Notes under the pieces: model-generated
What the model was told of the DNA's origin: nothing
The model's database searches: none
Seen by the model: only the letters and a program-made list of their open reading frames with translations
Translations under genes and position numbers: made by a program
Source of the DNA: Tsukamurella paurometabola
GTDB lineage: Bacteria > Actinomycetota > Actinomycetes > Mycobacteriales > Mycobacteriaceae
DNA length: 64,000 nucleotides
Assembly (NCBI RefSeq): GCF_900631615.1
Contig: NZ_LR131273.1
Span: 3,132,850 to 3,196,849 of the forward strand
Direction: 5' to 3'
Shown: piece by piece, positions 11,548 through 24,955 of the stretch
Position numbering within the stretch: position 1 is the first letter of the stretch
How the letters are laid out: each line of letters starts with the position of its first letter

Positions 11548-11577
11548 CCCCGGGGGTACCGGGCTAGTCTCGGTCGC

Positions 11578-12405: not shown

Positions 12406-12551
12406 ACCTCAGGGATTTCCCTGAACTTCTCGAAATACCCGGCTCGGGATGTAACGAACCGTGCCATGGTCCCTATAGAGCGTGTGACTTGAGTCCTACA
12501 GTCCAGCGGCGGCCCTGTGCCCCCGTCGTCAACACCCAAGGATGGGAACAC

Positions 12552-14084
12552 ATGAACACGAAGAAGATCGGAGCCGCGTCCTTCGCCGTCGTGGCAGCCG
12601 CCGGCCTCCTCGCCGGGTGTGGTAAGTCGACCGAGGGCGACAGCCCCGTCGCGTTCTCGCCCGTCACCGGCGACCAGTTCACCGCGAACCCGGGCGCCTT
12701 CCAGACCGACGGCATCGCCGTGCCGCCGAAGGGCGTGACGATGGTGGGTAACACCGTCGCCGCCCAGGCCGTGGCCAACTCCGGTCTGCCGCAGGGCACC
12801 ATCACCTCGACGATGAACAACACCACGGTCTACTACCCGCCGGCCCCGCCCATTCCGGGCCTGCGTGTGGCGCCGCAGCCTGCGCCGCCCGCGCCGATGG
12901 TGCGCCCGGCGAACTACAAGCCGTGGAACTACACCCCGCAGGAGATCGCGGTCTACCAGCAGATCTGCGAGACCGGCACGTGGAACAACTACCGCGCCGG
13001 TATCGAGGTCCAGACCCAGACCTGCTACACGCTCTACGGCCGCCAGCTCGGCGTGAAGCCGTGGCACCCCGGCCAGCCGCGCCCGTGGCAGCGCCCCGAC
13101 TACCCGAAGCCCTGGTTCTCGGCGGACTTCAAGGTCGACGTGCCGGTGTTCTGGGTGTACCCGAAGGACTGGAACCGGCCGAAGCCGCAGCCGATCGTCT
13201 CGGTGTCGATCAGCCTGAACCTGGGCAACAACCCGTACCGCCGCGTCAACCCGGCGTGGGATCAGCCGTACTACCCGGTGTGGGCCGTCACGCCCGGCCG
13301 CGTGGTCGATGTGCGTGACCAGGCTCGCGTCGTGGCGCCGATCTACACCACGACCACGACGACGACCACCACGACCACCACCACGACGGCGCCCGTCTTC
13401 CCCGGTACGGTGCTCGCTCCGCTGCCGACCTCGGCGAAAGTGACCCCCGTGACCGCGGTGCCCGGTGCGAAGGTGACCGGCAACGTCAACCTCGACGCCA
13501 ACGTGACCGTTCCGACCGCCGCCGCGCTCAAGGGCGCGACGATCCAGGCCGGCACCACCGCGTCGCTGAACGAGGCCATCGGTACCTCGGTCGAGGCGAC
13601 CGTCGCGAAGCCCAGCTCCGACAACGGCAACCGGGTCACCGTCCAGGGCGACGCCGGTGCGACCGTCTCGGGTGGCGCGGGTGCGACCGTGACCGGCGGC
13701 GCAGGTGCGGGCAACGGCACCGTCACCGGCGGTGCGGGTGCCGGCGCAGGTGCCACGGTGACCGGCGGCGGCGCGACGGTGTCCGGTGGCGCGGGTGCGA
13801 CCGTGACCGGCGGTGCCGGTGCGGCCACCACGACCACCACCAAGCCGGCGGAGCGCCCGACGCAGACGCAGACGCAGCAGCCGACGCAGACCAAGACGGA
13901 GGAGCCGACGCAGACGCAGACGCAGACTCAGCAGCCGACGCAGACGCAGCCGACCACCACGACCCCGGCCGCGACCCCGCAGGCCGCGACCCGGACGCAG
14001 ACCCAGGCGCCGACGGCCACCAAGCCGGCGACGACCTGCACCCCGGCTCAGGTCGAGGCTGGTACCTGCACCACCGGTAACTGA
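12552..14084 (+). CDS. Repeat-rich surface lipoprotein
   Basis: A 510-residue predicted lipoprotein. The signal peptide ends in the lipobox LLAGC, with the acylated Cys at residue 23. Residues about 80-265 are Trp/Tyr/Pro-rich (NYKPWNYTPQEIAVYQQ, GVKPWHPGQPRPWQRPDYP) and look like an ordered surface domain with several Cys. A run of 14 threonines follows (codons near 13346-13388), then Gly/Ala/Thr/Val repeats built on GGAGATVT, then a Thr/Gln repeat tract (TQTQTQQPTQTKTEEPTQ), and a short tail with two Cys. The low-complexity half may be a cell-wall spanning stalk. It is followed by a hairpin terminator and then tRNA-Asn. Function unknown. Confidence 0.85.
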   Translation: MNTKKIGAASFAVVAAAGLLAGCGKSTEGDSPVAFSPVTGDQFTANPGAFQTDGIAVPPKGVTMVGNTVAAQAVANSGLPQGTITSTMNNTTVYYPPAPPIPGLRVAPQPAPPAPMVRPANYKPWNYTPQEIAVYQQICETGTWNNYRAGIEVQTQTCYTLYGRQLGVKPWHPGQPRPWQRPDYPKPWFSADFKVDVPVFWVYPKDWNRPKPQPIVSVSISLNLGNNPYRRVNPAWDQPYYPVWAVTPGRVVDVRDQARVVAPIYTTTTTTTTTTTTTTAPVFPGTVLAPLPTSAKVTPVTAVPGAKVTGNVNLDANVTVPTAAALKGATIQAGTTASLNEAIGTSVEATVAKPSSDNGNRVTVQGDAGATVSGGAGATVTGGAGAGNGTVTGGAGAGAGATVTGGGATVSGGAGATVTGGAGAATTTTTKPAERPTQTQTQQPTQTKTEEPTQTQTQTQQPTQTQPTTTTPAATPQAATRTQTQAPTATKPATTCTPAQVEAGTCTTGN

Positions 14085-14183: not shown

Positions 14184-14256
14184 TCCCCCATAGCTCAATT
14201 GGCAGAGCATTCGACTGTTAATCGAAGGGTTACTGGTTCGAGTCCAGTTGGGGGAG
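14184..14256 (+). tRNA. tRNA-Asn (anticodon GTT)
   Basis: A 73-nt cloverleaf. The acceptor stem TCCCCCA pairs with TGGGGGA (14249-14255), the anticodon loop is CTGTTAA with GTT, and the T arm is ACTGG/CCAGT around TTCGAGT. The gene is intact even though the 10.7-kb element is inserted at its 3' end, because the element's copy of the att core restores the T arm, acceptor strand and discriminator base. A tRNA-Asn near the Rv2342 homologue is also the mycobacterial arrangement. Confidence 0.97.
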
Positions 14257-14258
14257 CA
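14232..14258. repeat. attL core (27-bp direct repeat, copy 1, inside tRNA-Asn)
   Basis: The 27 bases from 14232 to 14258 cover the tRNA-Asn T arm, the 3' acceptor strand and two bases beyond the discriminator. They are identical to 24929-24955. Perfect identity with divergence immediately outside both ends is typical of site-specific integration by a tyrosine recombinase at a tRNA 3' end. Confidence 0.93.
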
Positions 14259-14293
14259 GAGTTATCGCAGGTCAGATGGTGCAAGCGCTCCGC

Positions 14294-14316
14294 GTGCCAG
14301 AACGACATGCCAGATG
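14294..14316 (+). other. Candidate integrase arm-type sites, left end
   Basis: Two related words, GTGCCAGA (from 14294) and ATGCCAGATG (from 14307), lie 13 bases apart and 36 bases inside attL. The same word recurs twice near the right end (24794 and 24805), also inside the element. Short repeats flanking both att cores are what arm-binding sites of lambda-type integrases look like. Assignment is by pattern only. Confidence 0.45.
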
Positions 14317-14341
14317 AGCCCCGGTCTTCGGACCGGGGCTC
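14316..14341. terminator. UUCG-tetraloop hairpin at left end of element
   Basis: A perfect 11-bp GC-rich stem (14316-14326 with 14331-14341) closed by TTCG. It lies downstream of tRNA-Asn, whose original terminator was displaced to the right end at 24961, so it may now end tRNA-Asn transcription as well as insulate the element. The surrounding 14257-14492 contains no gene. Confidence 0.65.
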
Positions 14342-14390
14342 AGTTCGTTAGCGGAGGCTTCAACCTCAGGTCGAGTCTCGGGACGGGAAA

Positions 14391-14417
14391 CGCCCCCACC
14401 CGCTGAGGGTGGGGGCG
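14391..14417 (-). terminator. Terminator of the element's late (head) operon
   Basis: An 11-bp perfect stem, CGCCCCCACCC (14391-14401) with its complement (14407-14417), and a 5-base loop. Read on the minus strand it lies 76 bases after the stop of the last connector gene and is followed by GTTTCCC. It marks the end of the head operon exactly where tail genes would otherwise start. Confidence 0.7.
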
Positions 14418-14492
14418 CAGGGCACGCCATGAAAGGAACGAATGCGTGCCCTTGCCGGCTGCAGGGGAAAGTAGGAAACCCGTCCGGCCCGT

Positions 14493-14828
14493 CTAGGTGA
14501 GCTTTGCGCTCATGACTTCGTAGTGGTGCAAGCGTCCGCCGAGCATGTGTCGTTCAGCTGGTCCTGCGGCGTCGAGGGTGATGCCCTTCCACTCGTACTG
14601 CACGGGTGTCGACGACAGCGGCAGGTTGAGCGTCGGGGCCAGCATCATCTGATAGCGGGTCTCGTCGTACACATGCCCCAGCTCGGTGCGGGTGCCGCCG
14701 GTGACCGGCACCACCTGTCCGGGCACCACCTTGTCGACCTCGTCGTAGATCTCGTTGCCGTCCTCGTTGTATTGCGGCGGATCGAACGGTATCGAGTAGG
14801 TGACGCGGATTCGGTGCGGCCACAGCAT
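14493..14828 (-). CDS. Putative head-tail connector (stopper-like) protein
   Basis: A 111-residue beta-rich protein beginning MLWPHRIRVTYSIPFDPP and ending near HHYEVMSAKLT. Its size, its place as the last gene of the head module and its composition fit head-closure/stopper proteins of the SPP1 gp16 type, which gate DNA exit and provide the docking surface for a tail. Sequence similarity cannot be shown by eye, so the call rests mainly on gene order. The start codon overlaps the upstream stop by one base (TAATG). If the element is a satellite, this is the protein that would meet the helper's tail. Confidence 0.55.
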   Translation of the reverse strand: MLWPHRIRVTYSIPFDPPQYNEDGNEIYDEVDKVVPGQVVPVTGGTRTELGHVYDETRYQMMLAPTLNLPLSSTPVQYEWKGITLDAAGPAERHMLGGRLHHYEVMSAKLT

Positions 14829-15139
14829 TACAGGGCTCGCTTCCGGTAGCGGTTCAGGACGAACAGCTCGGCGAGGGTCCAGCCGGTGAAGCCGCCGCGC
14901 ACGGACACGGATCCGACGTCGGTTGCTAGCTGCTCGGGGTGGACGGCGAGGCGGGCGGCTGCGGTGGTGATGACAGCGGCGATCTGGTCGTTCGGCTCGG
15001 TGCCGGTGAATCCCTGGTCGCGGGTGTAGGCCATCGCCATTGCGGTGATGACGGTGGCGGCCTGCCCGGCCAGGGCGACGAGCTGTGTGTCGTCGCCCTG
15101 GCCTAGGAAGTCGGCCACGTCCTGGCCGGTGACCGCCAT
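14828..15139 (-). CDS. Putative head-tail adaptor protein
   Basis: A 103-residue mainly alpha-helical protein (MAVTGQDVADFLGQGDD..., then a helix-rich region ending VLNRYRKRAL). Small helical proteins directly after the major capsid gene are usually head-tail adaptors (gp6/gp15 type) that bind the portal ring. The pattern of an N-terminal DVADFLG-like segment and a C-terminal LNRYR is consistent with this family. It starts two bases after the capsid stop, within the same transcript. Confidence 0.6.
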   Translation of the reverse strand: MAVTGQDVADFLGQGDDTQLVALAGQAATVITAMAMAYTRDQGFTGTEPNDQIAAVITTAAARLAVHPEQLATDVGSVSVRGGFTGWTLAELFVLNRYRKRAL

Positions 15140-15141
15140 GA

Positions 15142-15984
15142 TTACGGCGCGTCGGTGAGGACGGCGACGGCCTCGGGGTGCAGCAGGCCGAGGTCGTAGC
15201 GGCAGGTGACGCGCAGGCCCACCTGGTCGTACTCGGCGTACCGCTCGTTGAGGACCGTCACGGACGGGGCGACGTCGCGGGCCACTGCGATGGTGCTGGT
15301 GTCCGCGAGGATCGCCTTGCCGGCCGCGAGCTTGTTGGTGACGGTCGCGGGGATGCCGAACAGGGTGGTGCCGCCGGCCTTGCTCGGGTCGGGCTCGAGC
15401 AGGTATCGGTTCGACGCGGTGCCCTCCTTGAGCTTGCGGAGTGCGGCGAAGTCGGCGCCGGACAGGAACCAGCGGTTCGGGGTGACCTCCTGCGCGTTGA
15501 GGGAGGCGATCGCGTCGAGCAGGGAGTCGGGGTCGGTGACGTCCAGCTCGCCCGTGGTGACACCGGTCTGATTGATGACGCCCTTGATCGAGTTCGACGC
15601 CCCGGCACCGGCTAGGAGAGCGTCGTCGAGCAGGTCCGAGACATCCTTGACTAGGCGTGCCTTGAGGGTCGCGTCGATGCCGATGACGGACTGGCGGACC
15701 AGCTCGTTGGTGAACCGCATGATCGTCTTGATGCTGGTGCGGGCGTTCGGCATGAGCTTGATCTCGTCGAACGCGATGTCAGCGGTGTCCGGGATCAGGC
15801 CACCCTCGGGGACGAACGTGGGGGTGGATCCGGAGACGAGGCGCGGGATGCGCAGTTCCGAGCTGGTGTCGAAGACGCGGACACCGGAGCTGAGGACCAC
15901 CGACGCGGCCTCGAGCGGCTGGACGAGCAGGCTCGCGACCTCGTCCTGCAGAAGAGTGGGATTGGATGCCGTGGTTTCGGCCAT
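15142..15984 (-). CDS. Major capsid protein (HK97-fold)
   Basis: A 280-residue protein from ATG 15984, chosen because a GGAGG site lies seven bases upstream; the longer in-frame start at 16032 would add 16 residues lacking coding character. Features typical of short HK97-fold capsids: an N-terminal arm (MAETTASNPTLLQDEVASLL), RIPRLVSGSTPTFVPEGG, then ELVRQSVIGIDATLKARL (spine-helix region) and a C-terminal RVTCRYDLGLLHPEAVAVLT. It has no protease-delta domain fusion; a separate scaffold gene lies upstream. It would form the shell of small particles. Confidence 0.88.
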   Translation of the reverse strand: MAETTASNPTLLQDEVASLLVQPLEAASVVLSSGVRVFDTSSELRIPRLVSGSTPTFVPEGGLIPDTADIAFDEIKLMPNARTSIKTIMRFTNELVRQSVIGIDATLKARLVKDVSDLLDDALLAGAGASNSIKGVINQTGVTTGELDVTDPDSLLDAIASLNAQEVTPNRWFLSGADFAALRKLKEGTASNRYLLEPDPSKAGGTTLFGIPATVTNKLAAGKAILADTSTIAVARDVAPSVTVLNERYAEYDQVGLRVTCRYDLGLLHPEAVAVLTDAP

Positions 15985-16039
15985 GATTTGCCTCCTGGGG
16001 CAGCAGTGGGATGTCGGGATTCCACGCGCCACCAGGACG

Positions 16040-16094
16040 ACTGAAGGGGACCAGCACCAGGCCGGCCCCCTTCAGTGTATCTCACAATGTGAGA
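16040..16094. promoter_or_regulatory. Hairpin plus palindrome between moron-like gene and capsid gene
   Basis: Two perfect structures fill this gap. The first is a 10-bp inverted repeat, ACTGAAGGGG/CCCCTTCAGT (16040-16049 with 16067-16076). The second is a 15-bp palindrome, TCTCACA-A-TGTGAGA (16080-16094), next to the preceding gene's stop. Read on the minus strand, the palindrome comes first and the hairpin second. The hairpin may terminate or attenuate the moron-like gene, and the palindrome could be an operator for a capsid-gene promoter. Confidence 0.5.
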
Positions 16095-16095
16095 A

Positions 16096-16506
16096 TTAGT
16101 CGTCGGTTTGCTCAGGCACATCGAGTCGGTTGGTTATTGCAATGCGCTTGCCCACCAATCCGCGAAGTCGCATACGGATGTCCAACTGATGGGTGATGGC
16201 GCGCAACACCTCGTACGGATCGACATCGTGAACGAAAATGTCTACTGCTTCAAACTCAGCGATCTCGCTGATGCGGCGCCCTTGAATCCAGTCGCGGTCG
16301 AGTGCAATGACATGTAAGTCGTGCTTGAACTCGCGTTCGCCACCGCCCAGATCAATCCCGATGATCTGCCATTTCCCTTTGTCGACACCGGTGAGCGAAT
16401 AGAGTGAATCTTCGCCGGTGATTCGTTCGTCGAGCGCGAGCGTGCCACGCCAGTCAGGATGGGTGAGTTCAGCTTCACCCCAAACGTAGTGCTCCGTCAC
16501 TTTCAC
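16096..16506 (-). CDS. Moron-like hypothetical protein of low GC within the head module
   Basis: A 136-residue acidic soluble protein (MKVTEHYVWGEAELTHPDW..., KGKWQIIGIDLGGGEREF, ...VPEQTDD) that I cannot assign. Hand count of 16096-16320 gives about 54% GC, while the adjacent capsid gene is near 70%, so the gene has a different origin. It sits between scaffold and capsid genes, a position not needed for assembly, and is followed by its own hairpin and palindrome. These are the classical marks of a moron: a cargo gene possibly for defence, helper interference or host benefit. Function unknown. Confidence 0.75.
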   Translation of the reverse strand: MKVTEHYVWGEAELTHPDWRGTLALDERITGEDSLYSLTGVDKGKWQIIGIDLGGGEREFKHDLHVIALDRDWIQGRRISEIAEFEAVDIFVHDVDPYEVLRAITHQLDIRMRLRGLVGKRIAITNRLDVPEQTDD

Positions 16507-16515
16507 TGCCTCCTG

Positions 16516-16944
16516 CTAGTTGGTGCCTCGCAGCATGCCAAGAAGGTTCACTTCTGCGGACCGGTTTCGAGATCCCTGCCCGACGTCGCCGGCAACCTTG
16601 CGCGCGGCGAGATGCGGCTTGCGGGCGAGAAGGTCGTCGATGGCCTGTGCCAGGGACGCCCCATCGTCCTCCAGGTGGGTGGCGTCGAACGGCAGATCGG
16701 TGGGATCGGCCAGCTTTCCGGTAGCGGTGACCAGCGCGGTGTGTAGGCGCTGAGCCAGTTCATCGCGGTCCTTCGCCCTCGTGCGGTACTTCGCGGCCTC
16801 GTCGCGCAGTCCCTTCACGTAGTCCTCGTCGTACGTCTTCGGCTCGACGGCGGGCGTGTCCTGCTCGGTAACAGACTCCTCCTGCGGCTGCTCGTCGGTG
16901 ACCTGCTCGGTCGTGGTCTCGGTGGTGGTCTGGTCGTCGGTCAT
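16516..16944 (-). CDS. Capsid scaffolding protein
   Basis: 142 residues from ATG 16944, preceded by an AAAGGA site. The N-terminal 40 residues are Thr/Glu/Gln-rich and acidic (MTDDQTTTETTTEQVTDEQ). The middle is a predicted coiled coil (YDEDYVKGLRDEAAKYRTRA, then KDRDELAQRLHTALV). The composition and the location between MuF and capsid genes are typical of phage scaffold proteins, which guide capsid polymerisation and then leave. The start overlaps the MuF-like stop (ATGA), implying translational coupling. Confidence 0.8.
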   Translation of the reverse strand: MTDDQTTTETTTEQVTDEQPQEESVTEQDTPAVEPKTYDEDYVKGLRDEAAKYRTRAKDRDELAQRLHTALVTATGKLADPTDLPFDATHLEDDGASLAQAIDDLLARKPHLAARKVAGDVGQGSRNRSAEVNLLGMLRGTN

Positions 16945-17522
16945 GCTGCTGTCCTTTCGATTCGGGTTGCGGGGACGGGTGTGCACCGGCACCCGGTGTG
17001 CCGATGCATCGGCTTGTCGGTCGGGTATATGTAGCCGATGCCCTCGGGGTCGAGGTGCTTCTTCTGCAGCCACACGCACAGCTCGCACGCGCCCGCGTTG
17101 AGCCGGCGGCGGTAGCCGGGCACCTCATGGGTGTTGTAGGTGTGGACCAGTTGTTGCTGAGCGGCCTCGGTGGGCTCGTTGCGGCCGATCCGGTCGAGCT
17201 GGGTCTTCAGGTCGTCGGCGGTGTCGAGCAGCGCGACGAGGGTGGCCGCGGCGTCGGCGAGGCGGGCGGTCTCACCTGCGACGGTGACCAGCGTCGTGCC
17301 TTTCGGCGTGGACGCCAGGTAGATGCTGCCGAGCCAGTCCGCGCCGGTGCGGGCGTAGGCGTTCATGGTGCCGACCACCTGGATGAACACGGCCTCGAAC
17401 TCGGCGGTGGTGAGCGTGCCGGCCTGCCACTGCTCGTACGCGGCGATGAGGGCGGCGGAGAGCTTGTCGCCGAGTTGGTCGACGTACAGCTCGAACTGCT
17501 CCGCCAGCTCGTCCGGGGTCAT
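16941..17522 (-). CDS. MuF-like minor head protein
   Basis: 193 residues from ATG 17522, which overlaps the portal stop (ATGA). The N-terminal two thirds are helical. The C terminus holds the Phage_Mu_F-type signature: CELCVWLQKK, then PMHRHTGCRCTPVPA, where Cys and His residues are spaced as in SPP1 gp7-class proteins. These minor capsid proteins bind the portal and the packaged DNA and can be injected. Order portal-MuF-scaffold-capsid matches SPP1-like head operons. Confidence 0.82.
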   Translation of the reverse strand: MTPDELAEQFELYVDQLGDKLSAALIAAYEQWQAGTLTTAEFEAVFIQVVGTMNAYARTGADWLGSIYLASTPKGTTLVTVAGETARLADAAATLVALLDTADDLKTQLDRIGRNEPTEAAQQQLVHTYNTHEVPGYRRRLNAGACELCVWLQKKHLDPEGIGYIYPTDKPMHRHTGCRCTPVPATRIERTAA

Positions 17523-18850
17523 GCTGCGCCGCCGAACAACTTGGAGACGTCCGCGTTGGCGATGTTGTCGCGGGCCCGGGCGGCGTGAATTTCCTCGATC
17601 TCCGCGTCGTTGTAGCCCAGCTTCTTGAGGGCGTAGCTCGCCGGCAGTAGGCCCACGCTGAACAGCTTGGTGACGGCGTCGGCTTCCTGCGCCTCGGAGC
17701 GGGTGGCGGGGTCGGCCCACTGCACCCGCACGTCGACCGACCGCGGATCAGCACCGTCACGGACGCCCACGATCAGACGCGCCACCTGCTCCCAGCTCTG
17801 CCCGAACAGTGCCTGCTTGCTCTCTGCGCGCGCCGTGAGGGCCGCCTCGGATGCGCGGATCGCGTCGGCCGAGGTGGGGTTATCGCCGCCGATACCGAGG
17901 GCGTGCTCAGGCAACCCCGACACCGCGCTGATCTGCCGCATGATCACGTCGATGCCGTTGCGGTAGCCACCGAGGTCCGCACCGGGGAGCTGCCCGAACG
18001 CGCCCTGCGGATCCTCGTTGACCATCAGGCGATCGCTCTCGGCGATCGGCGACACCGCCTCCATCACCGGCTGCCCGCCGTCGTCGAGAACCGGTTCACC
18101 GTCGGCGTCGACCTTCGGCCGCTCGTCCAACTCCAGGCCGGTCGCCCACCGCCGCGGACGTGCACCCGTCTCGCTGGCAACCATGAGGTCCGTCAGCAGC
18201 TTCGTCAGCGCGTCGGAGAGGTCCAGCACGTCGTCCATCTCCGATCGGCCCTCGTCGTCGAGGACTCGGTCGGAGTTGAGCAGCCGCACCACCGGGACAA
18301 CGCCCAGCGGGTTGTCGTACTCGTCGATCTTCTGGAAGCCGGCGGTTGTGGCGCCGGTCGAGTTGGCGACGTACTTCTCGATGCGGTCCTCGAGGTACAG
18401 GACCGCGTGCGTGCGCTTGCCGTCCTCCCACCGCTTCACCGCGGCGACGATCTCGCGGGTCACCGGGTCGGTGGTGACGGCGATCTGCCGCGCCGATTCG
18501 ATGCTCACCTGAGGGCGGCCAATCACATCGGCCCACACGATCGCGTACCCAGCGCCGAGCACCAGGGCCTCGCGGTGCGCGATCGGGCTGCGCTGGTCCA
18601 AGTTGTTGCGCAGCCACTCACCCCACACATCAGCGCCGGTGAAGCCGATGACCCGCAGCCGCTCGGTCAGGTTGTTCACCAACAGCTTCGGAATATTGCT
18701 GTTGAGCCGCTGGAGACGGTCGCCGAGGACCGCCCGCGATTCCGGCGAGATGAACGCCAACGGACCGTTGCCGGCGTAGTACCGGTCGTAGCGGTCGAAC
18801 CGAGCCAGCGGGTTGTCAATGCGCTGCAGCAAGGTAGTCAGGTCGGTCAT
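17519..18850 (-). CDS. Portal protein (SPP1 gp6-like)
   Basis: A 443-residue portal protein, which would form the dodecameric ring at the packaging vertex. ATG 18850 follows a strong TAGGAGG site. Recognisable family features are the N-terminal helical region with DRYDRYYAGNGPLAF, the VNNLTERLRVIGF segment, the wing-region Y-V-A-N context and a C-terminal ISAVSGLPEHALGIGGDNP ahead of the long crown helix. The length is typical. It follows the large terminase by 11 bases. Confidence 0.9.
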   Translation of the reverse strand: MTDLTTLLQRIDNPLARFDRYDRYYAGNGPLAFISPESRAVLGDRLQRLNSNIPKLLVNNLTERLRVIGFTGADVWGEWLRNNLDQRSPIAHREALVLGAGYAIVWADVIGRPQVSIESARQIAVTTDPVTREIVAAVKRWEDGKRTHAVLYLEDRIEKYVANSTGATTAGFQKIDEYDNPLGVVPVVRLLNSDRVLDDEGRSEMDDVLDLSDALTKLLTDLMVASETGARPRRWATGLELDERPKVDADGEPVLDDGGQPVMEAVSPIAESDRLMVNEDPQGAFGQLPGADLGGYRNGIDVIMRQISAVSGLPEHALGIGGDNPTSADAIRASEAALTARAESKQALFGQSWEQVARLIVGVRDGADPRSVDVRVQWADPATRSEAQEADAVTKLFSVGLLPASYALKKLGYNDAEIEEIHAARARDNIANADVSKLFGGAA

Positions 18851-18861
18851 GCGTGAGCCTC

Positions 18862-20325
18862 CTAGCTCGAAAACCCGGCCACACGGCGGCCGGAACGTTG
18901 GGTGTGATGCGCCGCCCGGTCCAGCGCGACGATGCTCGCCACAGCGGCGTCGATCTTCCGGGGAGAGTTCTTCTTGTCCTTGCTCACCAAGTCGCCCATC
19001 GGAGTGCGCTTGGCGACGCAGTGCGCGATGTGTGCGGCAAGCCGCGTGTCACCGTCGTGCGTCACAGCCTTGGTGACCACGGCCTGATAGAGGCGATCGG
19101 TGGCCGGCGCCATACGGGCCGCCGCCGCGGTGTTCCACTCGATCACCCGCTTGTCACCGTGCCGCTTCGCCCACGACTCGATCTCGGTGCGCCAGCCCCA
19201 CGGATCCGCCGCCAGCTCGATCACGTTGTACTTCTGGAAGGCCACGGCGACGGCGTTATCCACGTCCTCCCGAGGTACCCGCCAGCCCCGCTCGTTCTGG
19301 TTCTCCCACAACCCCTCCACCCACAAGTGCGGGACCGGGCCGACCGTGCAGCCGACCAACGCCGTGGAGTCACCGGACGCTGAACCGTCGAACGCCAGCA
19401 CCACCTTCGTGCTCCGGTCGACGCGCGGACCCTCTGACTTACACAAGTCCCATGCGCCGAACGGCAACCACGACTCCGAGCCCGTGACCCACTGGCCCAA
19501 ACGGAGCTGCCGGAACACCGGCTCGCGCAGTGTCCGACGCGCCGCCGCCATGCCGTCCTCCGCGAGGAACGGACGCTCACAGGACATCGCCGGGTTGCCG
19601 ATCCGCCAGGCCTCGCGGTCGTCGATGTTGCAGCCCTCCGGTGCGGCGAACTCACGAAGGTAGAACGCCGGGTCATCACCAGCGCGGCCGTGCTCGATCA
19701 GCCGCCACATCACCGAATCCGCCGACGAGGCCGGGGTGCTGATAGCCAACGTGAGAGACCGAGGTCGCTTGCCGACCATCGACGTCACGGCCTCCCAGAC
19801 CGCCTCGGTGACCACGTGCAGCTCATCCACAATCAGGACCGTGGGATCCCAGCCGTGCAGCGCGGACGGATCCGCCGGCAGTGGCAACAGCAACCCGTTG
19901 TTCAACGGCGTGGTGACCTTGTCGGCGAACAGATGTGCGCGCTCCAACAGCTCCGGCGCCAGCTCGATCATGCGCTTCGCGGCCCTCAGCGTGATGTTCG
20001 ACTGCCGCTGATCGCTCGCGACGACCAGCACCTCGGGCGAGTCCTCCACCAGGAACAGCACCGCCACCGAGATCATGGCTGCCAAACCGGTCTTACCGTT
20101 GGCGCGAGCGATGGACACCAGCGCCTGCCGAATCCCCTCCGCGAACGCGCCCCGAATGATCTCTTTCTGAAACTCCGCGAGCCGTACCAACTCACCCGCG
20201 CCGGCACCCTTCGGCACCACTAGGTAGGTCTCGATGAACAGGATGATCCGCTCCGCCAAATCGTCCGGCCAACCGCTGAAATCGAGCGGTTCAACGGCGA
20301 TCTGCCCCTTGGGCCCGGCCTTCAC
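18862..20325 (-). CDS. Terminase large subunit
   Basis: A 487-residue packaging motor. The ATPase domain has a Walker A-like ARANGKTGLAAM (about residues 70-80), Walker B VLIVDELHVV (about 165), and a coupling motif near LAISTPASS. The C-terminal nuclease has the metal-binding acidic residues in VVLAFDGSASGDSTAL and the late Asp in KIDAAVASIVALDRAAH. The start is GTG 20325, overlapping the HNH gene stop (GTGA). No separate small terminase is recognisable upstream, which is unusual and may mean a divergent one is present or the helper's is used. Confidence 0.92.
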   Translation of the reverse strand: MKAGPKGQIAVEPLDFSGWPDDLAERIILFIETYLVVPKGAGAGELVRLAEFQKEIIRGAFAEGIRQALVSIARANGKTGLAAMISVAVLFLVEDSPEVLVVASDQRQSNITLRAAKRMIELAPELLERAHLFADKVTTPLNNGLLLPLPADPSALHGWDPTVLIVDELHVVTEAVWEAVTSMVGKRPRSLTLAISTPASSADSVMWRLIEHGRAGDDPAFYLREFAAPEGCNIDDREAWRIGNPAMSCERPFLAEDGMAAARRTLREPVFRQLRLGQWVTGSESWLPFGAWDLCKSEGPRVDRSTKVVLAFDGSASGDSTALVGCTVGPVPHLWVEGLWENQNERGWRVPREDVDNAVAVAFQKYNVIELAADPWGWRTEIESWAKRHGDKRVIEWNTAAAARMAPATDRLYQAVVTKAVTHDGDTRLAAHIAHCVAKRTPMGDLVSKDKKNSPRKIDAAVASIVALDRAAHHTQRSGRRVAGFSS

Positions 20326-20816
20326 CGATACCCCCCAGGGGTGTGTGTCGCAAACTCTGCCTTGCCCCCGGGGTGTTCGTGCTGCTCAGGGGGTCTACTC
20401 CCCACCTGTACGGCACGCTGAGCCACTGGGATGAGCTTGCGCAGTCGGGGGCTAGGGCGACGATCCTGAGCGCCTAGAAGGGTGTTCAGGACCTCCTCTG
20501 CTTCGACTCGGGTGTAGCGGTTGCCGCGTGCGCTGTTGTGGGTGCGGCACCGAACGGTGATGTTCTCCATCGCGTAGGCCAGCTCCGGTGCGACGTCCAC
20601 GGGGATGATGTGGTCGGCGGTGAGGTCGCGGTCGGTGTGGCAGTCGATGCAGAAGGGCTGCATGCGGCGGGCTCGGACGCTGAGCCTGCGCCACTGGCTG
20701 TCGGTGCCTGCGTGGGCGATCTTGCGGGGCTTCTTGGTGTCGGCCGGGGTGCAGCTCGCACATCGTGTGCCCGAGGTGATGAGGTCACCGCAGTGGAGGC
20801 AGGGGCGTGCGGTCAT
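20322..20816 (-). CDS. HNH endonuclease
   Basis: 164 residues from ATG 20816. The N terminus has a zinc ribbon (CLHCGDLITSGTRCASC), then the HNH core: FCIDCHTDRDLTADHIIPV (first His), ENITVRCRTHNSARGNRY (Asn and last His). HNH proteins directly upstream of the large terminase are widespread in HK97-type packaging modules and stimulate terminase cleavage at cos ends, so a cos mechanism is plausible here. The C-terminal 45 residues are basic and low in complexity. It overlaps its neighbours by four bases on both sides. Confidence 0.88.
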   Translation of the reverse strand: MTARPCLHCGDLITSGTRCASCTPADTKKPRKIAHAGTDSQWRRLSVRARRMQPFCIDCHTDRDLTADHIIPVDVAPELAYAMENITVRCRTHNSARGNRYTRVEAEEVLNTLLGAQDRRPSPRLRKLIPVAQRAVQVGSRPPEQHEHPGGKAEFATHTPGGYR

Positions 20817-21064
20817 AGGGCCTCCAGGTCTGCGTGCCCGAGGAACAGACCGAGCATCTTGTACAGCTCGATGGCGTCGCCCTCGCAGAGCGAGTAGGGG
20901 CCTAGTTCGAACTCGCATCCGCGGCCGTTGAACACGATGCGTGCGGGTGCGGTGACCCACTGGTCGAGGGCGTCGATGTGGAAGTCGATGCCGCGTTCGG
21001 CGTGGACGTAGCGGTCTTGGTTGTCTTCGTCGGTGCGTGCGGTGTCGAAGGTGGGGAAGGTCAT
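20813..21064 (-). CDS. Hypothetical element protein (83 aa)
   Basis: A small acidic protein beginning MTFPTFDTARTDEDNQDRYV and ending LFLGHADLEAL, with a central GRGCEFELGPYSL. No family is recognised. It is translationally coupled on both sides (ATGA overlaps with the 52-residue gene upstream and the HNH gene downstream). It is not obviously a small terminase, having no helix-turn-helix near the N terminus. Confidence 0.7.
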   Translation of the reverse strand: MTFPTFDTARTDEDNQDRYVHAERGIDFHIDALDQWVTAPARIVFNGRGCEFELGPYSLCEGDAIELYKMLGLFLGHADLEAL

Positions 21065-21219
21065 GGTGTCTCCTGTTCGAGGGCGTCGATGATCTTGTTG
21101 GTGAGGTCGCGGGCTTCGTCGGCGGACATGACCCAGACGTCCCCGCCGAGTCGGACCATGACCTGGCCGCTGTTGATGGGGGTGACGGTGGCTTCACCGC
21201 GGCGCTGCATGCGCTTCAC
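21061..21219 (-). CDS. Very small element protein (52 aa)
   Basis: A GTG at 21217-21219 overlaps the helicase stop (GTGA) and gives 52 residues, beginning VKRMQRRGEATVTPINSG and ending ALEQETP. The stop at 21061-21063 overlaps the next gene's ATG (ATGA). These exact overlaps on both sides, a plausible basic N terminus and a helical C-terminal half (MSADEARDLTNKIIDALEQ) indicate a genuine gene despite its size. The central QVMVRLGGDVWVM could form a beta hairpin, suggesting a small DNA- or protein-binding fold. Function unknown. Confidence 0.65.
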   Translation of the reverse strand: MKRMQRRGEATVTPINSGQVMVRLGGDVWVMSADEARDLTNKIIDALEQETP

Positions 21220-22343
21220 GCTGGATCCCCGTCCGTGAGGTCCAGGTGCTCGCCGCTACCGAGCCAGCGATTCGCCGCACGTTCGGATGCAGGAACTGTT
21301 GAATCTGTTGAAAGTGTGGAATTGGTTTCAACACTTTCCACACTTTCAACACATGAGTACATTCCCCGTCCCTGTCGAATCAGTCGTCCCGCACTGACCA
21401 GACGGCCGAGATACGTTCCTGCCGTCTTGTTGTCCATACCGAGTTTGTCGGCAACGAACGATGGAGATACCGGCTCTGGTGACGCCTTGACCAGCGCCAA
21501 TACATCTGCCGACTGGTCGCCCAACTTGCCCGCATCCTTGCGCGCGGCGAGAGCGGCAGACGCCTCGGTCATCGTCGATCCAGCGAGCGCCCACCGGCCA
21601 CCACTGGTGACCATGGCGATCTCGGTCTCGGTGACGTCGCGACCGGTGATCGCGAGTGCGCCCTCGTCGGACTGTCGCTTGCGGGTGAGTACGAGGATGT
21701 AGTCCGCGGATCCGGCGAGTCCCTGTGTGCCGCTGACGGCGTCGAGGAAGTCGTCGGACTCGGCCTTGCGGCTGTGGTGGACGGCGAGGAGGCTCGCGCC
21801 GGGGAACGCGTCGATCATGTCCTTGAGTGCGGTGCCGGCCTGGTAGTCCGCGAGGTAGGGGTTGTCGCCGCGTTTCGGTTGCGGTCGGCCCTTTCCGAAC
21901 GTGTCGAGGATGACGAGGGGCTTGTCGTTTCGGTGGCGCAATAGCCATTCGGAGACGGTGGCGATGAGCTGCCCTGGTTCTATCTTCACCAGCAGGTCGA
22001 GCCTGGTGGGGATCGGCTGCCCCTCGGTGAGTGTGCGGAACCGGTCCTGGAGCCGGCGGTGTCCGTCCTCGAGTGCGAGGTACAGGACAGGGCGTGGTTC
22101 GACCTTGATTTGCCCGAGGGCTCGACCGCCGGATGCGCAGGCGAGGGCGAGGTTTCCGACGAACCAGGACTTGCCAGCTTTCGGCGGGCCGACGATGAAT
22201 CCGAATCCTTCGGTGACGATGCCGGGCACGATCTGTTCCAGTGGCGGGAACACTTGGGCGTCGAGCCATGCGCCGTTCACCAGGCCCTTGAGTAGCGAGT
22301 CGATCGGGTGCCCATCCGTGTCGTACTCGTTAGGTGCCGTCAC
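21216..22343 (-). CDS. RecA-fold (RepA/AAA_25-like) helicase or replication ATPase
   Basis: A 375-residue ATPase. Walker A is VGPPKAGKSWFVGNLA (about residue 53), Walker B PLVILDTFGKG (about 143), followed by LLAVHHSRK, the usual RepA/KaiC-type motif. The C-terminal third contains a winged-helix-like region (FVADKLGMDNKTAGTYLGRL). RepA-type hexameric helicases drive replication of plasmids and some phages, so this is likely the element's replication protein; a primase is not apparent. GTG start at 22343, coupled to the upstream gene by GTGA. Confidence 0.82.
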   Translation of the reverse strand: MTAPNEYDTDGHPIDSLLKGLVNGAWLDAQVFPPLEQIVPGIVTEGFGFIVGPPKAGKSWFVGNLALACASGGRALGQIKVEPRPVLYLALEDGHRRLQDRFRTLTEGQPIPTRLDLLVKIEPGQLIATVSEWLLRHRNDKPLVILDTFGKGRPQPKRGDNPYLADYQAGTALKDMIDAFPGASLLAVHHSRKAESDDFLDAVSGTQGLAGSADYILVLTRKRQSDEGALAITGRDVTETEIAMVTSGGRWALAGSTMTEASAALAARKDAGKLGDQSADVLALVKASPEPVSPSFVADKLGMDNKTAGTYLGRLVSAGRLIRQGRGMYSCVESVESVETNSTLSTDSTVPASERAANRWLGSGEHLDLTDGDPA

Positions 22344-22606
22344 GCGGCGTCATCCCGGTGGGGCGGGTACGGGATTGGGGCGCCTACGAGACCAAGACGA
22401 TGCTCGGCCTCCTTGGTGTCGACGCGCCAGTGGTTCGTGAGGGGCAGCTCGTTGTACGGGCCGCCGGGGCGGAGGGTGCAGTTCAGGCTGCGGTGTAGTC
22501 CGTCGCGGCAGCCGCATTCGAGCGGCTCGGATCGAGCGGCGGCATCACGGGCGCGACGGGTGGCGGCGTAGTCGGAATGTCCCGACGCGCGCGAGGGTCC
22601 GGGCAT
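22340..22606 (-). CDS. Hypothetical element protein (88 aa)
   Basis: From ATG 22606, preceded by an AAGGGA site. The first 30 residues are basic and probably helical (HSDYAATRRARDAAARS), then a Cys cluster (LECGCRDGLHRSLNC) and a Pro-rich tail. The start/stop overlap with the helicase gene supports it being real and co-translated. A nucleic-acid-binding role is possible, but I recognise no family. Confidence 0.65.
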   Translation of the reverse strand: MPGPSRASGHSDYAATRRARDAAARSEPLECGCRDGLHRSLNCTLRPGGPYNELPLTNHWRVDTKEAEHRLGLVGAPIPYPPHRDDAA

Positions 22607-22776
22607 GGGTATGGTCCCTTTCGGTCCTGCTGCTTGCTGGTGGTTCGGACTACGGCGTTCCGGGGATTCTTTGGCGAGAGGTCCGGGGCGCCGTTCTTGC
22701 GTTGGCGGTCGACGTTCCGTGCTGCGGTGTTGCCGGTGGGGTCGCGGTACGAGATCGCGCGCACTAGGCGACCCAC
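22483..22776 (-). CDS. Doubtful overlapping ORF between excisionase-like and 88-aa genes
   Basis: A 97-codon frame starts GTG 22776 inside the end of the excisionase-like gene and overlaps the 88-residue gene by 124 bases in another frame. Codons in the non-overlapped part (22607-22776) have mostly G/C third positions and encode a basic stretch (YRDPTGNTAARNVDRQRKNG). This could be a real small gene whose 3' part overlaps, or simply the untranslated gap before 22606. Confidence 0.25.
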   Translation of the reverse strand: MGRLVRAISYRDPTGNTAARNVDRQRKNGAPDLSPKNPRNAVVRTTSKQQDRKGPYPCPDPRARRDIPTTPPPVAPVMPPLDPSRSNAAAATDYTAA

Positions 22777-23003
22777 CCGCGTGGGCGGCGAGGGACTGCA
22801 TCGAGTGAGTGGGTGCCAGTCGCGGCTACGTCACGGGCAACTGGTTGCATGAGCGCGTCGAGGTCGTTCTCGTCGACGTACAGCGGACCCTTGCCCGCGA
22901 ACTGAAACAGGGTGATTTTGCCGTCCTGGGCGGCGCGAACAATGGTGTTGTAGTGCGGGGTGTTCTCGCGTTTGCACGCCTCGCGAAGGCGGATCTTCGC
23001 CAT
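22764..23003 (-). CDS. Excisionase-like helix-turn-helix DNA-binding protein
   Basis: A 79-residue protein. Its first 55 residues read like a winged helix-turn-helix of the excisionase/MerR type (MAKIRLREACKRENTPHYNT, VRAAQDGKITLFQFAGKG, LYVDENDLDAL), where KGPLYVDENDLD resembles the usual wing-to-helix pattern. Xis proteins bend DNA and direct the integrase to excision, and can also repress promoters. It is the first gene of the replication-head operon and so may be autoregulated from the 23004-23361 region. Confidence 0.7.
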   Translation of the reverse strand: MAKIRLREACKRENTPHYNTIVRAAQDGKITLFQFAGKGPLYVDENDLDALMQPVARDVAATGTHSLDAVPRRPRGWVA

Positions 23004-23361
23004 GGTCGGTGTCCTTGTCTGCCAGAGGATTCGGGGAGAGCGTGTTTGGTGCTCTGGAATTAGGTAAGCACACTGTTCCGACTCGTTCAGCTTGGTCTAA
23101 CGGCCGCAATCCTGAGAAAATGCGCAGTCGTTCTACACATTTCAGGAAATGGTCCTGATTGAGAGGTCAGCGGCGGACTGGAGCCCTAGTCCAGTTCCGG
23201 TGTTGAACTAGCGGATTTGACCCAGTGGTGACGGGTGAGCGGAAACGCACAGCGCCAGATAGGGTCACAAAGCCTTACCGGCGCTCAGCGGTTGGACGTG
23301 TTGAACAAACCTGGACGCTCGTACCTAATGTGATATCAGTCACAATCCATCGAAGCGATAG
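23004..23361. promoter_or_regulatory. Non-coding control region of the element
   Basis: About 360 bases without a supported gene, more AT-rich than the surroundings. It must carry the leftward promoter for the excisionase-to-stopper operon. Visible structures: a 6+7+6 inverted repeat ACTGGA-GCCCTAG-TCCAGT at 23177-23195, and a CRP-type palindrome at 23329-23344. A TTGAAC hexamer at 23311 on the plus strand is followed about 17 bases later by an AT-rich hexamer. An origin of replication or a packaging site could also lie here; nothing decisive is seen. Confidence 0.5.
23329..23344. promoter_or_regulatory. CRP/GlxR-type palindrome TGTGA-N6-TCACA
   Basis: The sequence matches the class consensus TGTGA-N6-TCACA in all ten conserved positions (spacer TATCAG). 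CRP/FNR-family regulators, including actinobacterial Crp/GlxR, recognise this motif. It lies in the element's control region, 18 bases from the terminator that follows the integrase operon. Binding by a host regulator is inferred only. Confidence 0.5.
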
Positions 23362-23397
23362 AAAAGCCCCCGTCCCGGGTGATTGGACGGGGGCTTT
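23362..23397. terminator. Bidirectional rho-independent terminator after integrase operon
   Basis: AAAAGCCCCCGTCC at 23362 pairs with GGACGGGGGCTTT ending at 23397 around a short loop. The A tract on one side and T tract on the other allow termination in both directions. It lies just after the stop of the Cys-rich gene at 23408 and separates the integrase transcript from the excisionase-helicase-head operon. Confidence 0.9.
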
Positions 23398-23407
23398 GAG
23401 CGTGAGG

Positions 23408-23647
23408 CTAGACAAGCCGCAGACGGCGGTGAGGCGGCTCCGGTGGTTGTTCCGGCTCGAGCTTGCCGCAGAGCAGGGTGACCACCATGGCCGCATCACG
23501 ACCGGTGAGTCCGCCCCGCCGGCCACACAGGCGGATAGAGTCGAGGAGCACGTCGGTCATCGCGGGGCAGTCCTCGAGGTGGCAGGCGAGACAGGCGGCT
23601 CCGACCGGCTTTCCGCACAGAGACAGCGCGGTGTTGGCGTCAGTCAT
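23408..23647 (-). CDS. Small cysteine-rich protein downstream of integrase
   Basis: 79 residues with clustered Cys/His (LCGKPVGAACLACHLEDCP, about residues 10-28, and later RLCGRRGG and LLCGK). Its ATG overlaps the integrase stop (ATGA). The first cluster has spacing compatible with a zinc-binding site. It could be a recombination accessory or regulator. Ends ten bases before the terminator, so integrase and this gene form a two-gene operon. No family recognised. Confidence 0.65.
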   Translation of the reverse strand: MTDANTALSLCGKPVGAACLACHLEDCPAMTDVLLDSIRLCGRRGGLTGRDAAMVVTLLCGKLEPEQPPEPPHRRLRLV

Positions 23648-24774
23648 GACTTCTCTCCTTCGATGAGTGCGGACAGTCGGCGGGCAATCTCGGCGTCGCG
23701 GCCCGCGGCGACGGATTGGTACCTGAGGGCGGCTGCTGGGGTTGAGTGCCCGAGTCGTCCCATCAGCTCAGCCAATGTCGCGCCGCTCTGTGCTGCCAGG
23801 ACCGCTCCACTGTGACGCAAGTCGTGAAATCGCAGGTCAGGCCGCCCGGCGGCGTCACGGGCAGGGTGGAATGACTTGTACAGCGTCGTCGGGGTCAGGT
23901 ACTCGGTGGCGTCACGGGCAGCGGGGAACAACAGCCCGTCCTTGTCGGGCGCAACGTGATCCTCAAGGTGTGCGCGGACCACGGGAACCAGCCCGGGCGG
24001 GATCGCTACGTCACGCCGTGATCCGGCTTTGGGATCGCCGACGATGTGCCGCTTATCCACGTAGACGACGCCGCGGCGGATGCGGAGGACACCCGAATGC
24101 ACGTCGTTCCCGTCCTCATCCTTGGTCGTGTGCAGTTCCACGTCCCGGCGGCGCAGTTCGGCCAGCTCGCCGAACCGGAGGGCGCACCAGGATGCGAGCA
24201 GCACGATGAGGCGTAGCCGATCGGGCATCGCGGCGGCGATCGCGGACAGCTCCGGGATCGAGGCGGGCTTGATCGTGATCCGTCGTTTGGTGCTGCCGGC
24301 GGCCGTGATGCGGCACGGGCTCTTGTCGATTACGTCATCCTTGACCGCGGTGAGCATGATCGTGCGCAGCAGCGAGTAGGAGTGCGCGCGAGTGGTGGCC
24401 TTCCCGGGTGCGAGGGTCGCGTGCCACGCCCGCACCGCGTCGGGGGTGATCGCCTTGAGCGGCCTGTCGCCGAATGTCGGGTTGATGTGCAGCCGCAGCA
24501 GTTGTTCGTAGTGCTCGCGCGTCTTCGGCTTGAGCGTGCGGTGCTTGAGCCACGACTCGCTGTACGCCCGGAACGCCACGCTGTCGGCCGACGCGCGCGG
24601 CACCCACTCGGTCGTGAGCACCTTGGCGCGCTGGATCACTAGCCAGTCGTCGGCGGCAGCCTCGGTGGGAAACGTGTCATCAGCCTTGTACTCCTCCCCG
24701 TCGGGGGCGGTGTAACGGGCCTGGAATCGACCCGAGGGCAGCTTGCGGATGCTGCCGAACTTGCGCTTGCTCAC
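23644..24774 (-). CDS. int: Tyrosine integrase
   Basis: A 376-residue phage-type tyrosine recombinase. The N-terminal arm-binding-like domain (FGSIRKLPSGRFQARYTAPD) is followed by the SAM-like core-binding domain (LKPKTREHYEQLLRLHINPT). The catalytic domain carries Arg in WCALRFGELAEL, HxxR in RFHDLRHSGA, the Gly-His in MGRLGHSTPAAALRY and the nucleophilic Tyr within that last motif. Length and all active residues are intact. It lies next to the right att core and is transcribed away from it. Its target is tRNA-Asn. Confidence 0.95.
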   Translation of the reverse strand: MSKRKFGSIRKLPSGRFQARYTAPDGEEYKADDTFPTEAAADDWLVIQRAKVLTTEWVPRASADSVAFRAYSESWLKHRTLKPKTREHYEQLLRLHINPTFGDRPLKAITPDAVRAWHATLAPGKATTRAHSYSLLRTIMLTAVKDDVIDKSPCRITAAGSTKRRITIKPASIPELSAIAAAMPDRLRLIVLLASWCALRFGELAELRRRDVELHTTKDEDGNDVHSGVLRIRRGVVYVDKRHIVGDPKAGSRRDVAIPPGLVPVVRAHLEDHVAPDKDGLLFPAARDATEYLTPTTLYKSFHPARDAAGRPDLRFHDLRHSGAVLAAQSGATLAELMGRLGHSTPAAALRYQSVAAGRDAEIARRLSALIEGEKS

Positions 24775-24793
24775 GGGCGGTAGTCCTCGATTC

Positions 24794-24814
24794 GTGCCAG
24801 ATCCGTGCCAGATG
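24794..24814 (+). other. Candidate integrase arm-type sites, right end
   Basis: GTGCCAGAT at 24794 and GTGCCAGATG at 24805, 11 bases apart, directly upstream of the integrase start and inside attR. They match the pair near attL, as expected for P and P' arm sites. The gap 24815-24928 is otherwise featureless and AT-rich. Confidence 0.5.
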
Positions 24815-24928
24815 GGGCGGGTTCAGACGAGGTTATTTGGTGCTCCATGAGTAGGTCAATGTTTCGGGAATCTCCGTGTCAGAACGAGATTCGTGCAGGT
24901 CTACCCATTGACTCAATCGTATCGAAAA

Positions 24929-24955
24929 ACTGGTTCGAGTCCAGTTGGGGGAGCA
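24929..24955. repeat. attR core (27-bp direct repeat, copy 2)
   Basis: Identical over 27 bases to 14232-14258. Only the 3' part of a tRNA is present, so this is the displaced end of tRNA-Asn, not a functional tRNA. The original tRNA terminator follows immediately. Confidence 0.93.

What the first reader, a model, noticed from the sequence alone, without database searches (positions are those of the whole stretch)
14232..24955. A compact head-only element with no tail or lysis genes: candidate capsid-forming phage satellite
Seen: a 27-bp perfect att repeat at tRNA-Asn; one-strand gene set int, xis-like, RecA-fold helicase, HNH, large terminase, portal, MuF, scaffold, capsid, adaptor and stopper; frames intact and joined by repeated 4-base overlaps; the set ends at a terminator precisely after the last head-tail connector, with no tail, holin, lysin or baseplate genes in 10.7 kb. 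Known: capsid-forming phage-inducible chromosomal islands encode their own packaging and head but take tails from a helper. Inferred: this is an actinobacterial member of that lifestyle. The rival view is a prophage that lost its tail and lysis half by one deletion.
Basis: partly seen in the sequence, partly recalled or inferred. Interest (0 to 1): 0.88.

Follow-up and report, generated by a model that had tools for sequence, protein, structure and literature searches.

The report
Head-only phage satellite island
This 10.7-kb island looks like a small parasite of phages that builds and fills its own virus heads but must borrow tails from another phage; similar islands occur in many related actinobacteria.

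Summary
A 27-bp repeat at tRNA-Asn bounds a 10,724-bp island with int, Rep-like helicase, HNH, TerL, portal, scaffold, capsid, adaptor and stopper genes; no tail or lysis gene was recognised. The layout is not unique: of 31 islands that I could bound by repeats, 29 carry the same TerL-to-adaptor block (mean 10.7 kb, sd 0.67), 26 of them at tRNA genes of nine amino-acid types. In all 29 the head block ends at the adaptor or stopper, with at most 2.5 kb left. No tailed phage with a close capsid was found (best-ranked isolate hit 29%). The genome also holds a second such island and a 49.6-kb tailed prophage, a possible helper. Relatives show the empty site, and most head-gene comparisons show purifying selection. 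A capsid-forming phage satellite is much better supported than a prophage that lost its tail. That kind is known (cf-PICIs, MulchRoom, mycobacterial candidate PICIs), so this is a new member; strict cf-PICI membership is not shown, as no small terminase or clear protease was found. Helper induction and tail capture are inferred. A sister group carries only scaffold and capsid, and 16 of 29 islands lack a recognised stopper.

The parts
14184..14257 (+). tRNA-Asn (gtt), attachment gene
   Evidence: ARAGORN
14232..14258 (+). att repeat, tRNA end
   Evidence: 27-bp perfect direct repeat
14314..14345 (-). hairpin beyond the stopper
   Evidence: fold -25.9 kcal/mol, z -6.87
14388..14424 (-). hairpin beyond the stopper, possible terminator without U-run
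   Evidence: fold -28.1 kcal/mol, z -4.58; not listed by the terminator scan
14493..14828 (-). head-closure (stopper) protein, last gene
   Evidence: family rows match Hc1 PHROGs; weak hits to solved stoppers
14828..15139 (-). head-tail adaptor
   Evidence: family profile to solved adaptor gp9 E 1.9e-6; Ad1 PHROG in 10 of 24 members
15142..15984 (-). major capsid protein
   Evidence: PF05065 E 4.7e-34; phrog_10
16096..16506 (-). 136-aa protein of unknown function between scaffold and capsid
   Evidence: no family; 26% relative in the same slot of L080
16516..16944 (-). scaffold protein
   Evidence: phrog_233 E 1.5e-6 (a longer ORF with the same end was scanned)
16941..17522 (-). MuF-like minor head protein
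   Evidence: PF25310 E 0.002, phrog_1522 E 0.0013 (weak)
17519..18850 (-). portal protein
   Evidence: PF05133 E 7.4e-42
18862..20325 (-). large terminase
   Evidence: PF03354 and PF20441; phrog_9 E 4.1e-80
20322..20816 (-). HNH endonuclease
   Evidence: phrog_144 E 4.5e-17
20813..21064 (-). 83-aa protein; 34% relative in the resident tailed prophage
   Evidence: phrog_17603 E 2e-11; relative in L006
21061..21219 (-). 52-aa protein, shared with the second island
   Evidence: gene; DNA 84% in L004
21216..22343 (-). AAA_25 helicase with C-terminal winged-helix match: candidate Rep
   Evidence: PF13481 E 1.1e-22; AbiEi_4 E 2.1e-4 at 284-329 (below its cut-off)
21303..21354 (.). inverted repeat in the 3' end of the Rep gene, candidate origin
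   Evidence: 19-nt arms 95% complementary; arrays in relatives, (the window itself was not listed there)
22340..22606 (-). 88-aa protein, unknown
   Evidence: gene; no Pfam hit
22764..23003 (-). xis-like small protein
   Evidence: position; 42% relative in L072; no family hit
23408..23647 (-). 79-aa protein beside int
   Evidence: gene; no hit
23644..24774 (-). tyrosine integrase
   Evidence: PF00589 E 9.5e-13; phrog_1
24929..24955 (+). att repeat, integrase end
   Evidence: 27-bp perfect direct repeat

Best explanation
The island is a capsid-forming phage satellite. Shown: it sits in a tRNA-Asn gene with precise repeats and carries its own integration, replication-like, packaging and head genes up to the head-closure protein, and no recognised gene for tail or lysis. 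Inferred: when a tailed helper phage is active the island excises, its AAA_25 Rep starts replication (probably at repeats in the 3' end of the rep gene), the HNH nuclease and TerL fill its own small heads, and the adaptor and stopper give a docking face to which the helper's finished tails attach; the helper lyses the cell. The resident 49.6-kb tailed prophage at tRNA-Lys is a candidate helper.
For: Repeat-bounded with open frames. Same head block in 29 of 31 repeat-bounded islands, mean 10,695 bp, sd 673, range 9,471-13,276; adaptor in 29 of 29, stopper recognised in 13 of 29, at most 2,476 bp after the last recognised connector. 26 of these 29 lie at a tRNA, of nine amino-acid types. Empty site in relatives: one alignment crosses the joined junction well beyond the repeat at 92-94% identity in four genomes. 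dN/dS adaptor 0.13-0.32, stopper 0.23-0.38, portal 0.29-0.35, scaffold 0.33, capsid 0.21 in the closest pair. 41 island capsids lie on one side of a branch from six outgroup capsids. Best-ranked isolate capsid 29%. A second such island in the same genome beside a prophage with lysin, tape measure and major tail protein. Repeat arrays in 13 of 31 islands against a mean of 0.65 in shuffles. Functional precedent: MulchRoom.
Against: No excision, particle or helper dependence is shown. No small terminase and no clear head protease was identified. No repressor was recognised in the window island, whereas 15 of 150 non-core ORFs of relatives match each of two repressor-type helix-turn-helix families. 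Window adaptor and stopper are assigned only through family profiles. The stopper shows no special likeness to an isolate phage's (best E 0.05). dN/dS is higher for capsid against L004 and L074 (0.51, 0.66), for MuF against L004 (0.46), and for HNH and TerL (0.63-0.78), at distances where the estimate is poor and modules are swapped.
Confidence: 0.85

Rival explanations
1. A defective prophage that lost its tail and lysis half in one deletion and is now decaying.
For: The gene set is a subset of a tailed phage's, in the usual order. Individual relatives do decay: in L073 a 404-aa ORF that looks like a transposase lies between the adaptor and a stopper fragment (one of 66 downstream ORFs matches a transposase family, member not shown), and the L034 capsid is called as two pieces.
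Against: The same stopping zone and size recur in 29 islands at many sites, with two integrase orientations and two terminase types; frames open and selection mostly purifying; no tailed relative with a close capsid seen.
Confidence: 0.04
2. An old satellite that is now inactive in this strain, although its family is mobile.
For: No repressor or small terminase was recognised in the window island.
Against: All head frames open; selection signal. An IMG/VR record, L007, holds the whole gene set at 99-100%, but it may be the same strain.
Confidence: 0.08
3. A tailless particle that needs no helper tail and reaches cells by another route.
For: The authors of PMC10690885 infer that the satellite MiniFlayer attaches to its helper instead of using a tail (passages).
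Against: Adaptor and stopper serve to join a tail (family knowledge); no receptor-binding, lysis or cargo gene was recognised in the window island.
Confidence: 0.03

Closest known systems
Capsid-forming phage-inducible chromosomal islands (cf-PICIs; Alqurainy et al. 2023, paper not seen; known here through passages of PMC10690885)
   Same: Integrated island with own capsid, portal, connectors, TerL and HNH; no tail genes
   Different: No TerS and no clear protease found; sequence relation to published cf-PICIs not tested; helper untested
Streptomyces satellites MulchRoom (OQ784832) and MiniFlayer (OQ357865)
   Same: Actinobacterial satellites with TerL, portal, scaffold, capsid, adaptor; MulchRoom's head block ends at the stopper and its virions have a small capsid and a helper-length tail (PMC10690885, passages)
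   Different: Of the window proteins only the portal matches (about 25%); two relatives' integrases match MulchRoom over 58-65 aa and two relatives' capsids match MiniFlayer at E 0.003-0.005. They have terminal repeats and TerS, and virulent helpers
Mycobacterial candidate PICIs and phiRv1/phiRv2 (PMC10654092, section 9 and passages read)
   Same: Integrase plus capsid, some with terminase, scaffold and helicase, some at tRNA genes; mobilisation not shown
   Different: That survey covers Mycobacteriaceae; I could not compare sequences with its data sets, and mycobacterial members listed here may be among them
SaPI-type PICIs
   Same: Own Rep with repeat arrays near it (the SaPI side is recalled)
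   Different: SaPIs reshape helper capsids rather than make their own (PMC10690885 passages)

Membership tests
cf-PICI | Own major capsid protein | tested here: met
   PF05065 E 4.7e-34
cf-PICI | Own portal | tested here: met
   PF05133 E 7.4e-42
cf-PICI | Own head-tail connectors | tested here: met
   Through family profiles; window proteins alone give no hit
cf-PICI | Large terminase and HNH endonuclease | tested here: met
cf-PICI | Small terminase subunit | tested here: inconclusive
   No TerS match in the window ORFs scanned; several small unknown ORFs remain
cf-PICI | Head maturation protease | tested here: inconclusive
   Only the MuF-like protein matches phrog_1522, E 0.0013
cf-PICI | No tail genes in the element | tested here: met
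   Window ORFs. Relatives: 150 non-core ORFs (first 25 of 102 families shown) and 66 downstream ORFs (first 25 of 39 shown): no tail or lysis family among those shown
cf-PICI | Integrase and precise att sites (satellite feature) | tested here: met
   empty site
cf-PICI | Depends on a helper for tails only | not testable with these tools
   Needs the bench
cf-PICI | Sequence kinship with published cf-PICIs | not tested
   Reference elements not fetched; the paper was not seen
Mulch/Flayer satellites | Homologous head module | tested here: not met
   Window: only the portal matches (24.6%)
Defective prophage | Kinship with a full-length prophage from which it decayed | tested here: not met
   Best-ranked isolate capsid 29% (25 of 145 rows shown); no tailed member seen among the loci examined

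The most novel reading that the evidence does not exclude
Actinobacteria hold a graded family of head-building satellites that differ in where they hand over to the helper: some end at the stopper (borrow only the tail); at least seven of 29, and perhaps about half, end at the adaptor (would borrow stopper and tail); and a sister group keeps only scaffold and capsid (would borrow portal, terminase and tail while imposing its own shell). Within the family two terminase types only about a third identical are swapped under one capsid lineage.
Probability: 0.4. Interest if true: 0.75.

Novelty: new member of a known kind. Interest (0 to 1): 0.52.

Why it matters
PMC10023795 (passages read) says that experimental validation of phage satellites in actinobacteria lags behind. 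This family has near-uniform size, and one fully sequenced strain carries two islands and a candidate helper, so tail capture can be tested directly. If the handover point really varies, one could ask which connector decides head-tail compatibility.

Tried and rejected
Structure prediction of adaptor and stopper never ran: the machine was busy, so no fold evidence is given. To name a helper I sought isolate phages with a similar stopper or adaptor: one weak local hit each, so none is named. Phage TPA4 of Tsukamurella (PMC4972346, passages) was considered as an induced island: it is a 56.2-kb siphophage, not a satellite; ten resident-prophage proteins have hits in the first 50,000 of its bases. 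The second island's empty site: alignments in relatives go at most nine bases past the junction, so it is not shown. Defence families among 150 ORFs of relatives: eight families, matched by one to six ORFs each; no claim is made, and the window's own small ORFs were not scanned against that library. The repeat-array scan used 20 shuffles of two-base blocks per island; it did not list the window, and in several listed islands (for example L025, L039, L078) the array is only two copies of one palindrome. Two TerL dN/dS values failed for wrong ends and were not repeated. The plasmid collection gave 40 records with a related capsid (12 listed): the best, 49.5%, is an island on a T. tyrosinosolvens record; a second Tsukamurella and a Corynebacterium record were not looked at.

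Rows left out of the 31: L021 (short contig); L024, L030, L033, L040, L042, L043, L073, L083, L088, L076, L077, L089 (no repeat pair accepted); L045, L046, L047 (partial, or no match to the window queries); IMG/VR loci L007-L020 (proviral contigs mostly without both flanks, partly duplicates, or distant; L013 had the same repeat pair as L026 and was taken as its duplicate). Less sure ends: L029, L036, L038 (repeats of 23, 16, 15 bp, no tRNA) and L039 (15 bp at a tRNA). The 29 are not all independent: L034 and L035 are nearly identical in capsid. L082 (13.3 kb) holds an extra 456-aa ORF; one of the 150 ORFs matches a DDE transposase and I suppose that it is this one, unchecked. Gene calls in relatives come from a simple codon-based script, not a standard annotator.
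Full report
What is there. The window lies in a one-contig 4.70-Mb genome. I take the host to be a Tsukamurella: the best genome contigs capsid is in T. spumae at 90%, and the island of genome G015, same genus as the window, has gene coordinates at a constant offset from those on a T. tyrosinosolvens record. The species is not known. A 27-bp perfect repeat at 14232-14258 and 24929-24955 bounds 10,724 bp; one copy is the 3' end of tRNA-Asn. Within it the called genes all read leftward: integrase, a 79-aa gene, a xis-like gene, an 88-aa gene, an AAA_25 helicase, two small genes, HNH, large terminase, portal, MuF-like, scaffold, a 136-aa gene, capsid, adaptor, stopper. Eight neighbour pairs overlap by four bases. 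Two strong hairpins follow the stopper; a consensus scan found no U-run terminator there.

Is it one of many? A capsid search of IMG/VR gave 14 relatives; the ten at 54% identity or more are on contigs of 7.7-13.2 kb. The one scan of genome contigs gave 27 loci in Tsukamurella, Gordonia, Skermania, Nocardia, Mycobacterium, Mycolicibacterium, Janibacter, Citricoccus, Brevibacterium and unclassified Actinomycetota, with three partial or unrelated loci at the bottom of the list. In the host's genus 6 of 16 genomes match, the window's own included, five of them better than E 1e-90. In a draw from the order, 17 of 397 genomes match at E 1e-20. Mapping the window proteins on these loci shows one order: HNH, TerL, portal, sometimes MuF, scaffold, capsid, adaptor, sometimes stopper. 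The exceptions are the capsid-only loci below.

Boundaries. For 31 islands, the window included, I named a repeat pair. Of these, 29 have TerL; mean length 10,695 bp, sd 673, range 9,471-13,276. All 29 have the adaptor. A stopper was recognised in 13 of 29; L072 has an unrecognised 102-aa gene in that position. In seven of the others (L025, L027, L032, L041, L080, L081, L085) only 231-332 bp remain to the far end of the repeat, so no stopper of usual length fits. The largest remainder is 2,476 bp, too little for a tail module: in the resident prophage the tape measure gene alone spans 4.3 kb. Of the 29, 26 have a repeat at a tRNA gene (Asn, Leu, Ala, Ser, Pro, Arg, Thr, Met, Val). The integrase reads with the head genes in some and against them in others. 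In relatives without an island at this site one alignment runs across the joined flanks: bases 1-292, 1-290, 1-295 and 3-293 of 500, junction at 250, identity 92-94%. So the island entered an intact site.

No tailed relatives seen. In 50,697 phage records the capsid's best-ranked match is 29% identical (145 records match, 25 shown), mostly Streptococcus phages; portal up to 37.5% (25 of 2,226 shown), TerL about 32% (15 of 2,654 shown); adaptor and stopper one weak local hit each. A PHROG scan of 150 non-core ORFs of the islands other than the window (156 listed at 75 aa or more; seven dropped, one added) showed mainly regulators, primases and helicases, and no tail or lysis family among the first 25 of 102. 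A scan of 66 ORFs downstream of the capsid block in 11 loci without an accepted repeat pair showed one head-tail connector family and no tail or lysis family among the first 25 of 39. The families not shown could not be checked. In a quick, unrooted capsid tree of 47 rows, 41 island capsids are separated from six outgroup capsids that I picked (three phage records, one plasmid record, two IMG/VR contigs) with support 100, but the branches are long and the program warns of it. Closer full-length relatives could exist outside the collections.

Still under selection, and mosaic. dN/dS is 0.13-0.32 for the adaptor, 0.23-0.38 stopper, 0.29-0.35 portal, 0.33 scaffold, 0.24-0.46 MuF, and for the capsid 0.21 in the closest pair but 0.51 and 0.66 in two distant ones; HNH and TerL give 0.63-0.78. 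The second island of the same genome has an adaptor 95% identical to the window's while capsid is 68%, stopper 61%, TerL 36%. Two terminase types, about a third identical to each other, need at least seven changes on the capsid tree, six of them forced by well-supported branches.

How it probably works. The helicase carries a below-cut-off winged-helix match at its C-terminus, and its gene an inverted repeat near the 3' end (21303-21354). In relatives, arrays of direct and inverted 8-mers occur in 13 of 31 islands against a mean of 0.65 in shuffles; in 12 of the 13 an array lies in or within 60 bases of an early ORF of 316-589 aa. I infer a Rep protein and its origin. Packaging by HNH and TerL, and head assembly, are then self-encoded. 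The adaptor family is conserved (mean column identity 46%, 24 rows) and the stopper family less so (32%, 13 rows including the prophage's), as expected if the stopper face must suit different tails; this is inference. Tails and lysis must come from elsewhere. The same genome has a 49.6-kb prophage bounded by a 40-bp repeat at tRNA-Lys (42,222 and 91,807) with lysin, tape measure, major tail protein, tail terminator, own adaptor and stopper. It is a candidate helper; nothing shows that it is one. It has a 34% relative of one small island gene.

What is known. PMC10690885 (passages) describes cf-PICIs, which encode capsid, protease, portal, connectors, both terminase subunits and HNH and need only tails, and reports MulchRoom. 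Of the window proteins only the portal is related to MulchRoom and MiniFlayer (about 25%). PMC10654092 (section 9 in full and passages) lists mycobacterial candidate PICIs with integrase and capsid, some with terminase, scaffold and helicase, some at tRNA genes, and says induction is not shown. PMC10023795 (passages) suggests that actinobacterial elements under 15 kb may be satellites. Searches for this family in print. I saw titles and abstract starts (one search listed 10 of 32 papers); none named head-only satellites of Tsukamurella or Gordonia. The cf-PICI paper was not seen, and a satellite survey was not held. So the kind is known and this is a new member; strict cf-PICI membership stays open because TerS and protease were not found.

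Beyond the window. Five loci (L076, L077, L086, L087, L089) carry a distant capsid on the island side of the tree with no TerL or portal match; a scaffold family match was found in the four that I scanned, L077 not being scanned. Two of them, L086 and L087, are bounded by repeats at 9.6 and 10.3 kb; the L077 stretch stops near its capsid, so its downstream genes are unseen. If intact, such islands would replace only the helper's shell. That, with the islands lacking a stopper, is the boldest reading and is not excluded.

Noticed in passing
L004:8726-19218 (host genome about 128.7-139.2 kb): A second island of the same family in the same genome, at tRNA-Leu with a 28-bp repeat; adaptor 95% identical to the window's while other head proteins are 36-68%.
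   Followed up: yes
Host genome 42,222-91,846 (L048, L005, L006): A 49.6-kb tailed prophage at tRNA-Lys with 40-bp repeats and tail, lysis and connector genes: candidate helper.
   Followed up: partly
L086:4302-13869, L087, L089, L076, L077: Loci with capsid (scaffold match in four scanned) but no TerL or portal match, next to each other in the capsid tree.
   Followed up: partly
L041, L042, L043, L044 capsid genes: These capsids carry an inserted stretch of about 90-100 aa; in L041 it is 38% identical over 79 aa to part of TPA4 Orf13.
   Followed up: partly
Islands L025, L027, L032, L041, L080, L081, L085: Head block ends at the adaptor with 231-332 bp left to the far end of the repeat: no room for a stopper of usual length.
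   Followed up: partly
L026:13479-14279: Beyond the right repeat of a Nocardia island: a capsid C-terminal fragment and a second copy of an antisense gene pair, apparently a remnant of a tandem island.
   Followed up: no
L073:13016-14230: In genome G004 a transposase-like ORF lies between the adaptor and a stopper fragment.
   Followed up: no
window 16096-16506 and L080:10969-11409: A 136-146-aa gene family (26% identical) in the slot between scaffold and capsid; unknown function.
   Followed up: partly
L031, L032, L078, L081, L082, L084 between HNH and TerL: One or more small antisense ORFs sit between HNH and TerL in these islands, a recurrent insertion slot.
   Followed up: no
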